Assembly (NCBI RefSeq): GCF_023223645.1
Contig: NZ_JALKBY010000002.1
Location: 62,001-126,000 of the forward strand
Origin: Natroniella sulfidigena
Lineage (GTDB): Bacteria > Bacillota > Halanaerobiia > Halobacteroidales > Halobacteroidaceae
Direction of reading: 5' to 3'
DNA: 64,000 bases
In this document: positions 18,265-21,228 of the stretch, piece by piece
Layout of the letters: each line of letters starts with the position of its first letter
Numbering within the stretch: position 1 is the first letter of the stretch
Notes under the pieces: generated by a model
Databases searched by the model: none
Told to the model about the DNA's origin: nothing
What the model saw: the letters and a program-made list of their open reading frames with translations, nothing else
Made by a program: the position numbers and the translations under genes

Positions 18265-18648
18265 TTATTCTTTAAACTCAAGCCCATCCCAAGGCTTAAT
18301 CTCTCCATACAACAATATCTGTAAAGCTTCGCGAGTATTATTCAAGAAGCATTTCTCAGTATGATAGACTCCACATTCTTGGCAACAATCATGCACTGAC
18401 TCATAAATCCTTTCCAACTCATCTCGATCAAATTTAGTAAACTCACTTTGATCATAATCATCAAAAGTTTCCTTTTTAAACTTTTCATCAAGTTGAGATT
18501 CATACTTGCTATAATCCAATAGATTCTTCTTCGATTTATGTAATAAACAACTAGCACAATTTTTATCACTACAATTAACACAAGCATCATTTGCTAGGTT
18601 ATAAGCCTTTAACACCTTAACTTTAGGAATTTCGAACAATTTAATCAC
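18265..18648 (-). CDS. Cys-rich protein of unknown function, co-transcribed with rubrerythrin
   Basis: I do not recognise this 127-residue protein. It has two cysteine clusters, CVNCSDKNCASC near residues 23-34 and CCQECGVYHTEKC near residues 87-99, separated by an acidic, Lys-rich stretch. The spacing suggests zinc or Fe-S binding. There is no signal or membrane segment. Two starts are possible: GTG at 18648, or TTG at 18639 with a better placed AGGTGA site. It is the first gene after a strong promoter with a palindrome and lies just upstream of a rubrerythrin, so a role in redox or metal stress is a reasonable guess. Confidence 0.75.
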   Translation of the reverse strand: MIKLFEIPKVKVLKAYNLANDACVNCSDKNCASCLLHKSKKNLLDYSKYESQLDEKFKKETFDDYDQSEFTKFDRDELERIYESVHDCCQECGVYHTEKCFLNNTREALQILLYGEIKPWDGLEFKE

Positions 18649-18809: not shown

Positions 18810-21080
18810 TTAATTTGTAAAAGGTCTTAAAGCAAACGTAAAGGTAGATCCTTTACCAACTTCACTCTCAACCCAAATTCGACCATCATGATCTTCAATA
18901 ATTTCTTTACTGATTGTTAGCCCTAGACCACTTTTAGAACTGCTCTTTCTTTCTGATAAACTTACGTATCTTTCAAAAATCTTCTCTTGATATTGCGGAG
19001 GAATCCCTTCACCATTATCTATCACTGAAATACAGATCCAATCATCTTTTCTTTTAGCAGAAACTGTAATTTCTCCTCCCTCTTCTGTATAACGAATAGC
19101 ATTTACTAATAAGTGAGTCAATACCCAACTGACCTTATGGCTATCAACATGAATAGCTGGCAAATCATCTTCTATCTCTAAATTTGCATTAATATCTTTA
19201 GCTTGAATCTCTTGTTCTAAAGCATTGACAGAAAAATCAACTAAGTTCTTGATGGCAACAGTTGTTTTAGTCGAAGAGTCAACCTTTGATTCTTCAGGAC
19301 TGACTGAGACATTATCTTGATAAGCTGTAGTTATATCTTCTTGTCTCAAAACTCCTATTAGTTTATAGGATTCTTCATCCTCTACAACTGGGATTTTTTG
19401 CAATTTAACCTTATTCATAATCTGCATAGCATTTAATAAATTATCATCTTTATAGATCACACCAGGAGATGGAAAGGTAAGTTTCTGTACAGTTTCTCCA
19501 ACTTCTTGCCTTACATCCCAATATTTAAAGACACGATGATGATTTAACATTCCAATCAGCTCATCAGTTGCTTCATCAACGACAGGTAACCAAGAATAAA
19601 GTGTCTTATCAAAAACCTCTTTTGCCTCTTTAATAGTATCATTTCTTGTCATTGTAATTGGATCATTATTCATCACATCATCAACTTGAACATTCTTTAA
19701 AACCTTTTCTTTCTCAATCGCATCAATATCTAAACCTTTATCAAAAAACTTGGTTGTATAAATATTCTGCTTTTGAATATGAGAAGCAACTACTGTACTA
19801 ATAATACAAGATAGCATCAATGGTAAAATAATCTCCGGTTCCTGTGTTAGCTCAAATAAAATAATTATGGATGTTAATGGAGCATGAGCAGCCCCTGCAA
19901 AAACTGCCCCCATACCTATTACAGCATAAGAACTAGCTCCAGCTGTAACTGTAGGGAATAAAGAATGAACCATGATTCCATACGCACTACCAAGCATTGC
20001 TCCAATAAATAATGAAGGAGCAAAATCACCACCTGAGCCACCACTACCTAAGGTTAAATTAGTAGCTAAAATCTTAGCAAAGACCAAAATAATAGCCGTC
20101 TGCAAAGGCAATCTACCATGTAATGCCTCTTCCATTATTGAATAACCAATAGCATATACTTCAGGAACTGCAAGAGCCATTATTCCAACTAATAATCCTC
20201 CAATAGCTGGCTTTATAGAATCTGCTAGAGGAAGTTTTTTGAAAAAACCCTTAAAAGAATAAAGAGAGTTTTGAAATAAAATAGCTACAAAAGCTGCTAT
20301 AATCCCTAATAATAAATAAGGGATCACTTCCCAAAGGCTAACTAATGTATGTTGGGGAACATCGAAAATAGCTCCTCTAGTGCCTAATAAAACTTTAGCT
20401 ATACCTGTTCCTGCTACTGAAGAAACTACAATAGGAGTAAAGTTACTTACCTTAACATCTCTAAGAATAATCTCTAAACTAAATATTACTCCACCGAGTG
20501 GTGAATTAAAAGTAGCTCCAATTCCAGCTGCAACCCCTGCTCCTAATAAAGCTTCCACCTTTTCAGGACTTAACTTAAAGAGTTGACCAAAAAAAGAACC
20601 GATAGCCCCTCCAATCTGTACAACTGGCCCCTCACTTCCTGCTGAACCACCAGTACCAATAGTAATTGCAGATGCAATTGCTTCAAATGGAGCTACCCGG
20701 GCTCGAATCTTTCCTCCTTTTAAAGCAGCAGCCTCCATTACTGCAGAAACCCCATTATCTTTTAACTCTGGAGCCAGATAATTAATTAAAGGCCCTACAA
20801 TTAAACCACCTACTGCCGGGGCAATAATACGATAATACCAAGGTAAACCTCTTACAACATCTAACAAACCATCTGCTACATCCGGGCCAAAAAATATTTC
20901 TTGTACAATATTGATCGAACTATAAAAAATAACTGCTCCTACTCCTCCTACCACTCCCACAATAGCACCTAAAATAACCATTTGAGGCATATCAACCTGG
21001 ATTAAAGAGTTAATCAACTTTAAAAGTTGATTTATACTCTGTTTATATCTATTAGTAAGATGATTTCGTTCAGGTTTCAC
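18810..21080 (-). CDS. ClC chloride channel/transporter fused to a CBS pair and a histidine-kinase-type ATPase domain
   Basis: A single uninterrupted 756-residue frame holds three parts. Residues 30-435 are a ClC membrane domain: GSEGP with gating Glu150, then GGDFAPSLFIG near 350-360. Residues 465-585 are two CBS motifs (VDDVMNNDPI and KIPVVEDEE). Residues 600-752 are a GHKL/HATPase domain with an N-box Asn660 (HLLVNAIRYT), the G1 box DNGEGIP (688-694) and SGLGL (717-721). No phospho-acceptor His motif is seen between CBS and ATPase. The second proton glutamate of ClC-ec1 (in IIEEM) appears replaced by Ile203. It is probably an ion-responsive signalling or ATP-gated channel; the output is unknown. 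A GTG start follows AAAGGAG. Confidence 0.93.
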   Translation of the reverse strand: MKPERNHLTNRYKQSINQLLKLINSLIQVDMPQMVILGAIVGVVGGVGAVIFYSSINIVQEIFFGPDVADGLLDVVRGLPWYYRIIAPAVGGLIVGPLINYLAPELKDNGVSAVMEAAALKGGKIRARVAPFEAIASAITIGTGGSAGSEGPVVQIGGAIGSFFGQLFKLSPEKVEALLGAGVAAGIGATFNSPLGGVIFSLEIILRDVKVSNFTPIVVSSVAGTGIAKVLLGTRGAIFDVPQHTLVSLWEVIPYLLLGIIAAFVAILFQNSLYSFKGFFKKLPLADSIKPAIGGLLVGIMALAVPEVYAIGYSIMEEALHGRLPLQTAIILVFAKILATNLTLGSGGSGGDFAPSLFIGAMLGSAYGIMVHSLFPTVTAGASSYAVIGMGAVFAGAAHAPLTSIIILFELTQEPEIILPLMLSCIISTVVASHIQKQNIYTTKFFDKGLDIDAIEKEKVLKNVQVDDVMNNDPITMTRNDTIKEAKEVFDKTLYSWLPVVDEATDELIGMLNHHRVFKYWDVRQEVGETVQKLTFPSPGVIYKDDNLLNAMQIMNKVKLQKIPVVEDEESYKLIGVLRQEDITTAYQDNVSVSPEESKVDSSTKTTVAIKNLVDFSVNALEQEIQAKDINANLEIEDDLPAIHVDSHKVSWVLTHLLVNAIRYTEEGGEITVSAKRKDDWICISVIDNGEGIPPQYQEKIFERYVSLSERKSSSKSGLGLTISKEIIEDHDGRIWVESEVGKGSTFTFALRPFTN

Positions 21081-21156
21081 ATTCTTACTCCTTTCCCTTC
21101 TGAAGTGCTACTAAAAAATGCTAAATCTCTCCTGGAAATACTTAAACTCTAGTTTG

Positions 21157-21185: not shown

Positions 21186-21197
21186 AGCTTAAAATAA

Positions 21198-21217
21198 GAA
21201 TACCCTCGAGGGTATTC
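21198..21217. promoter_or_regulatory. Perfect 20-bp palindrome in the ClC fusion leader
   Basis: GAATACCCTCGAGGGTATTC lies about five bases after the likely start of the upstream promoter, so a transcript from it would begin with a strong hairpin. It could be an operator, an mRNA stabiliser or a weak terminator (TTATTTT follows on the minus strand). Confidence 0.6.
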
Positions 21218-21228
21218 TTGCGTTCTAT

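What the first reader, a model, noticed from the sequence alone, without database searches (positions are those of the whole stretch)
18810..21080. A ClC chloride channel fused to CBS domains and a histidine-kinase-type ATPase without a phospho-acceptor
One uninterrupted 756-residue frame joins a full ClC domain (gating Glu150 kept, the ClC-ec1 proton glutamate site replaced by Ile203), two CBS motifs, and a GHKL ATPase domain with Asn660, DNGEGIP and SGLGL. Normal histidine kinases have a dimerising His domain before the ATPase; here that region has a Lys/Thr-rich stretch without the motif. In a salt-loving cell this could sense or gate chloride by ATP, or phosphorylate another protein. I know of no described system with this layout. 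Two promoters and a strong leader palindrome suggest regulated expression.
Basis: partly seen in the sequence, partly recalled or inferred. Interest (0 to 1): 0.87.

Follow-up and report, generated by a model that had tools for sequence, protein, structure and literature searches.

The report
Chloride channel carrying kinase ATP domain
A chloride-channel-type membrane protein in salt-loving bacteria carries, at its inner end, only the ATP-binding half of a sensor kinase whose nearest relatives sit in potassium-uptake operons; the fusion is real, old and conserved, and looks like a way to tie chloride movement to the cell's energy or potassium control.

Summary
One open 756-residue frame (18810-21080, minus strand) joins a ClC domain (2e-95), two CBS domains and a HATPase_c domain (4e-29), with no HisKA/DHp. 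It is no local frameshift: 7 of the other 58 Halanaerobiia genomes searched carry the same fusion (5 complete, 2 at contig ends); none was seen in about 1,100 sampled genomes outside the class. No member has the phospho-acceptor domain. Trees of the two halves agree, so one old fusion is likely. The ATPase half groups with a sensor kinase that heads Trk potassium-uptake operons at all 16 loci annotated; in two genomes the fusion gene itself stands beside KtrB-KtrA. Best reading: the ATP-binding half of a potassium-operon kinase, reused as a nucleotide-sensing regulator of an anion transporter in KCl-accumulating cells; phosphorylation of a partner is the main rival. In two genomes the G2 lid motif is lost, yet the domain stays under purifying selection. 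The window's copy also has unusual anion-filter residues. No description was found in the papers searched. Function is inferred, not shown.

The parts
18810..21080 (-). Complete fusion gene, 756 aa: ClC - CBS - CBS - GHKL/HATPase_c (CA) domain, GTG start
   Evidence: ORF list; Pfam; full-length relatives
19785..20810 (-). Voltage_CLC domain, residues 91-432 (first membrane helices begin about residue 30)
   Evidence: Pfam PF00654 2e-95; PDB 1kpl 8.7e-45
20745..20759 (-). DNGVS, residues 108-112, at the GSGIP/GHGVP anion-site motif: D108, N109 and S112 depart from Gly, His and Pro of relatives
20625..20639 (-). GSEGP, residues 148-152: gating Glu150 kept; the residue before it is Ser149 (Arg in 41 of 50 other sequences)
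20013..20030 (-). GDFAPS, residues 351-356 (GxFxP motif): Asp352 where 50 of 51 other sequences have Val or Ile
19521..19685 (-). CBS domain 1, residues 466-520
   Evidence: Pfam PF00571
19311..19469 (-). CBS domain 2, about residues 538-590 (bounds approximate)
   Evidence: Pfam counts two CBS stretches; alignment
19143..19307 (-). Linker, residues 592-646: joins CBS2 directly to the helix and strand that precede the CA core in kinases; no DHp, no His box
   Evidence: alignment with kinases
18825..19142 (-). HATPase_c (CA) domain, residues 647-752; N-box Asn660, G1 DNGEGIP 688-694, F box IFERY 701-705, G2 SGLGL 717-721
   Evidence: Pfam 4.1e-29; HK853 and YycG sequence matches; fold matches
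21088..21093 (-). Shine-Dalgarno-like AAGGAG 7 nt before GTG
   Evidence: read from the sequence
21196..21219 (.). 24-bp perfect palindrome AAGAATACCCTCGAGGGTATTCTT in the leader; possible operator or hairpin
   Evidence: RNA fold of the leader z -1.76

Best explanation
This is a real protein family confined, as far as sampled, to Halanaerobiia: a ClC-CBS anion transporter or channel that gained, once, the catalytic/ATP-binding (CA) domain of a sensor histidine kinase without its dimerisation/phospho-acceptor domain. The donor was probably of the kinase type that now heads Trk potassium-uptake operons in these bacteria. I propose that the CA domain works as a nucleotide-sensing regulator: ATP binding closes its lid, changes how it packs on the CBS pair, and so opens or closes the anion path, coupling Cl- movement (counter-ion to K+ in KCl-accumulating cells) to energy or potassium state. 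Shown: architecture, conservation, absence of DHp, single origin (trees), kinship to Trk-operon kinases, purifying selection in one pair. Inferred: ATP binding, regulation of the gate, direction of regulation, physiological role.
For: Domain calls. Fusion in 8 of 59 class genomes over four families. No DHp in any member; the join falls just after DHp helix 2 of the related kinases. The CA domains form one clade (100/99), the ClC-CBS parts one clade (SH-aLRT 88), with the same internal order. The closest kinases in the class head HK-RR-RR/TPR-TrkA_N-TrkA-TrkH operons; in the window's own genome the operon continues KtrB-KtrA-TrkA-like-ClC. The fusion gene stands beside KtrB-KtrA in G419 and G421, and between a TrkA-like gene and a second ClC in G431. 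The G1 Asp and N-box Asn are kept in 8 of 8, while G2 is lost in 2 and altered in 1, yet omega of the CA part is 0.17 in the G2-less pair: retained function that need not be catalysis. Precedents: Halanaerobiales balance salt with KCl (PMC2329653); nucleotides regulate CLCs through the CBS region (PMC10423218).
Against: No experiment shows ATP binding or flux control. The intact N, G1, F and G2 boxes in this copy and four relatives would also suit real catalysis. The grouping of fusion CA with Trk-operon kinases alone is moderate (85/63); the wider clade that also holds soluble PAS kinases of other Bacillota is firm (98/90). The genes next to the fusion differ among genomes, and in the window it is not beside potassium genes.
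Confidence: 0.5

Rival explanations
1. Kinase in trans: the CA domain phosphorylates a histidine (or other residue) on a separate protein, for example the DHp of the Trk-operon kinase or a partner linked to its response regulators, so that the ClC acts as an anion sensor for two-component signalling.
For: All nucleotide motifs are intact in this copy. The genome also has the Trk-operon kinase and two response regulators. In sister genome G428 an unfused ClC-CBS gene follows an RR-HK pair with a gap of about 24 bp. Transporter-kinase fusions that signal are known: Ks-Amt5, CbrA.
Against: Ks-Amt5 and CbrA keep their own DHp; this family has none. Five of the eight fusion genomes have no close copy of the Trk-operon kinase at E<=1e-90 (one of them, G432, is only 77% complete). 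G2 is lost in two members.
Confidence: 0.25
2. Sensor without transport (transceptor): in this species the ClC part has lost or changed its transport and only reads anion level, as Ks-Amt5 does for ammonium.
For: Five filter-motif residues depart from relatives, including Asp352 and Asp108, while Glu150 and Tyr441 stay. The query has the longest end branch in the fusion clade of the ClC tree (0.59). Ks-Amt5 lost transport and became a sensor (PMC5764959).
Against: The five other complete members have ordinary filter motifs, so this cannot be the role of the family. Substitutions alone do not prove loss of flux; selectivity may just have changed.
Confidence: 0.15
3. Passenger domain or accident: the CA domain has no function, or the fusion is a sequencing or frameshift product.
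For: The CA part is divergent between lineages (29-51% identical) and degenerate in two genomes.
Against: Eight genomes, congruent trees, one frame each, omega 0.17 for the CA part in the one measurable pair.
Confidence: 0.07

Closest known systems
Bacterial ClC-CBS proteins (ClcB-like, NCBIfam PRK01862)
   Same: ClC domain plus two CBS domains; PRK01862 covers residues 28-588 at 1e-110 (below its own equivalog cut-off); V/I at the ec1 Glu203 site
   Different: They end after CBS2; here a CA domain follows. Filter motifs of this copy differ
Trk-operon WalK-type sensor kinases of Halanaerobiia (HAMP-PAS-HisKA-HATPase_c)
   Same: Nearest CA domain by tree within the class; same N, G1 and F boxes
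   Different: They have sensor, HAMP, PAS and HisKA with the His; the fusion has none of these
Ks-Amt5 (ammonium transporter fused to histidine kinase, PMC5764959)
   Same: Channel/transporter domain with a C-terminal kinase module
   Different: Amt, not ClC; trimeric; keeps DHp and CA
CbrA / SLC5-STAC histidine kinases (PMC7096432)
   Same: Transporter domain fused to kinase parts
   Different: SLC5, STAC and PAS; keeps DHp with His766
Nucleotide-regulated CLCs, e.g. AtCLCa (PMC10423218)
   Same: Cytosolic ATP regulates anion flux through the CBS region
   Different: No CA domain; ATP sits between the N-terminus and CBS

Membership tests
ClC anion channel/transporter family | Full Voltage_CLC domain | tested here: met
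   PF00654 2e-95 over 345 of 346 positions
ClC anion channel/transporter family | Gating Glu and central Tyr | tested here: met
   Glu150, Tyr441
ClC anion channel/transporter family | Anion-site motifs G(S/H)G(I/V)P, GREGP, GxFxP | tested here: inconclusive
   Here DNGVS, GSEGP, GDFAP; the complete fusion relatives have GHGVP, GREGP, GIFAP
ClC anion channel/transporter family | Anion flux | not testable with these tools
   needs reconstitution
ClC-CBS subgroup | CBS pair after the ClC domain | tested here: met
   two CBS stretches
Histidine kinase | CA domain with N, G1, F and G2 boxes | tested here: met
   PF02518 4e-29; motifs present in this copy
Histidine kinase | DHp domain with phospho-acceptor His | tested here: not met
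   no HisKA match at E<=1; alignments show the whole DHp missing
Histidine kinase | Autophosphorylation | not testable with these tools
   needs assay
Transporter-kinase fusion of the Ks-Amt5 or CbrA kind | Own DHp between transporter and CA | tested here: not met

The most novel reading that the evidence does not exclude
A histidine-kinase CA domain, cut from a potassium-operon sensor kinase and stripped of its phospho-acceptor, has become an ATP-sensing gate of an anion channel or transporter: a kinase module working as a ligand-binding channel regulator, coordinating K+ and Cl- uptake in salt-in bacteria.
Probability: 0.4. Interest if true: 0.8.

Novelty: new variant of a known kind. Interest (0 to 1): 0.62.

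Why it matters
How salt-in fermenting bacteria coordinate K+ and Cl- uptake under tight energy budgets is little known. A ClC whose tail is kin to a kinase of potassium operons is a direct molecular candidate, testable by ATP-binding and flux assays. It would also show a kinase CA domain living on without its phospho-acceptor as a channel regulator, with a natural series from intact to G2-less copies.

Tried and rejected
Frameshift or two-gene artefact: rejected, full-length relatives in five other genomes. E203 replacement as a special trait: it is the rule in relatives. Fusion by read-through from a neighbouring HK gene: in G428 the HK lies upstream of the unfused ClC-CBS, the wrong order, and its CA falls in another kinase clade. 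Palindrome as an operator shared with the Trk operon: no second copy in the genome at up to 2 mismatches. The genome-contig scan with the single protein gave only kinase CA matches. AlphaFold from a single sequence gave a weak model (pLDDT 53) that still matches kinase DHp-CA structures, best HK853 (E 1e-8); used only as support. Literature searches found no ClC-HATPase fusion, but subscription papers and protein-architecture databases are not covered.

Full report
OBSERVATION. The frame at 18810-21080 on the minus strand is open for 756 codons from a GTG with AAGGAG 7 nt upstream. Pfam finds Voltage_CLC (residues 91-432, 2e-95), two CBS stretches (1.9e-17) and HATPase_c (647-752, 4.1e-29), all over their curated cut-offs, and no HisKA even at E<=1. 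PDB sequence search matches ClC structures over residues 21-456 and histidine kinases (HK853, a CovS/VicK-like protein, YycG) over the tail. A single-sequence AlphaFold model of the tail is weak (pLDDT 53), but its best fold matches are histidine-kinase DHp-CA structures, 1e-8.

CORRECTIONS. The residue at the ClC-ec1 Glu203 position is Ile204, and all 51 aligned ClC proteins with a residue there have V, I or L, so it is ordinary. Of the two promoters, only one weak TG-type site lies in the leader, and the scan finds fewer sites than shuffles do. The palindrome (24 bp, 21196-21219) is real, and its core has no second copy in the genome at up to 2 mismatches; its role is open.

SPREAD. In 59 genomes of the class, the fusion occurs in the window's genome, G431 (54% identity), G435 (51%), G349 (49%), G421 (46%), G419 (45%), and as contig-edge fragments in G434 and G432. 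Two close ClC-CBS genes in the same family as G431 end after CBS2 (G428, G429). No fusion appeared outside the class in a draw of 398 genomes of the phylum, 349 of the phylum of a Shewanella, 296 of the phylum of a Siphonobacter and 98 of another class of the window's phylum. These are samples, not censuses, and the thresholds (1e-60 to 1e-90) ask for a good ClC-CBS match.

ANATOMY OF THE JOIN. Aligned with kinases, the fusion tail begins just behind DHp helix 2: the SHEFR box and both DHp helices are missing, while the helix and strand before the N box and the whole CA core are present. The G1 Asp and the N-box Asn are kept in all eight. G2 reads GLGL in five, GLAL in G349, and is lost (DDLPLSS, EDLPLSS) in G419 and G421. 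Between those two, omega is 0.067 for ClC, 0.111 for CBS and 0.174 for the CA part (Nei-Gojobori), so the CA part is still selected although its lid motif is gone. This is one pair of genomes.

ORIGIN. The eight CA domains form one clade (100/99); the ClC-CBS parts do too, with the unfused G428/G429 as sisters (SH-aLRT 88), and the internal order is the same: (query,(G431,G434)) and (G435,(G349,(G419,G421))). One old fusion followed by joint descent fits. The nearest kinases within the class form the group around G000:C11:7818-9698, a HAMP-PAS-HisKA-HATPase_c protein. The grouping of fusion CA with these (plus one kinase of another class) has 85/63; the wider clade with soluble PAS kinases of other Bacillota has 98/90.

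POTASSIUM LINK. This kinase heads HK - RR - RR/TPR - TrkA_N - TrkA - TrkH at every one of the 16 loci annotated; in four of them a single gene (the short RR in three, TrkA in one) was not picked up by my simple ORF caller. In the window's genome the run continues KtrB - KtrA - TrkA-like - ClC without CBS. The fusion gene itself stands directly before KtrB-KtrA in G419 and G421, between a TrkA-like gene and a second ClC in G431, and about 5.6 kb from a KtrB gene in G349. In the window its neighbours are a pyrophosphatase and PcrA on one side and a small Cys-rich ORF and a rubrerythrin-like gene on the other (names by my reading of the sequences). Halanaerobiales are described as balancing salt with KCl (PMC2329653), so joint control of K+ and Cl- makes sense.

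MECHANISM. I favour a nucleotide-sensing regulator: ATP binding to the CA domain acts through the CBS pair on the ClC gate. For: no DHp in any member; survival of the domain after loss of G2; no close Trk-operon kinase in five of the eight fusion genomes (G432 is incomplete), which speaks against that kinase as a fixed partner; nucleotide control of CLCs through CBS is known. Against: nothing here shows ATP binding, and five copies have all motifs for catalysis. Rivals are trans-phosphorylation (0.25) and a sensor without transport (0.15).

THIS COPY. The window protein departs from every aligned relative at Asp108 (Gly in all 50 others with a residue there) and Asp352 (Val or Ile in 50 of 51 others), and from most at N109, S112 and S149, while Glu150 and Tyr441 stay. 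An Asp in GxFxP next to the anion site is unexpected for an anion carrier. Either selectivity changed, or this copy conducts poorly and senses. Ks-Amt5, an ammonium transporter fused to a kinase, is a precedent for such a change.

KNOWN KINDS. It is a member of the ClC family by domain and key residues. It is not a histidine kinase: the DHp test failed. It resembles transporter-kinase fusions (Ks-Amt5, CbrA) in layout but lacks their DHp. I found no description of ClC plus HATPase_c. I call it a new variant of a known kind.

Noticed in passing
window 20745-20759, 20625-20639, 20013-20030: Anion-filter motifs of this ClC (DNGVS, GSEGP, GDFAP) differ from those of its complete fusion relatives (GHGVP, GREGP, GIFAP), two of the changes being to Asp.
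   Followed up: partly
L092 93-9698 (G000:C11): Long potassium operon in the window's genome: HAMP-PAS kinase, single receiver, receiver-TPR, TrkA_N, TrkA, TrkH, KtrB, KtrA, TrkA-like, ClC. The receiver-TPR protein has no DNA-binding domain hit, so this two-component system may act on the transporters directly.
   Followed up: partly
L085 3676-8004 (G428): Unfused sister ClC-CBS gene follows a response regulator and a sensor kinase with a gap of about 24 bp; the kinase is from a different clade than the fusion's CA domain.
   Followed up: partly
L070 and L071 (G419, G421): CA domain has lost the G2 glycine motif but stays under purifying selection: a pseudo-ATPase or altered-lid copy.
   Followed up: partly
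window 21196-21219: 24-bp perfect palindrome in the leader, unique in the genome; possible operator.
   Followed up: partly
window 18265-18648: 127-aa Cys-rich ORF downstream on the same strand, its start 28 bases behind a strong promoter-like site (TTGACA-17-TATACT, 18705-18677); function not examined.
   Followed up: no
L142, L143, L144, L146, L148, L150, L152, L157 (other Bacillota): Soluble PAS kinases of 350-395 aa, most paired with a single-receiver gene, are close kin of the Trk-operon kinase.
   Followed up: no
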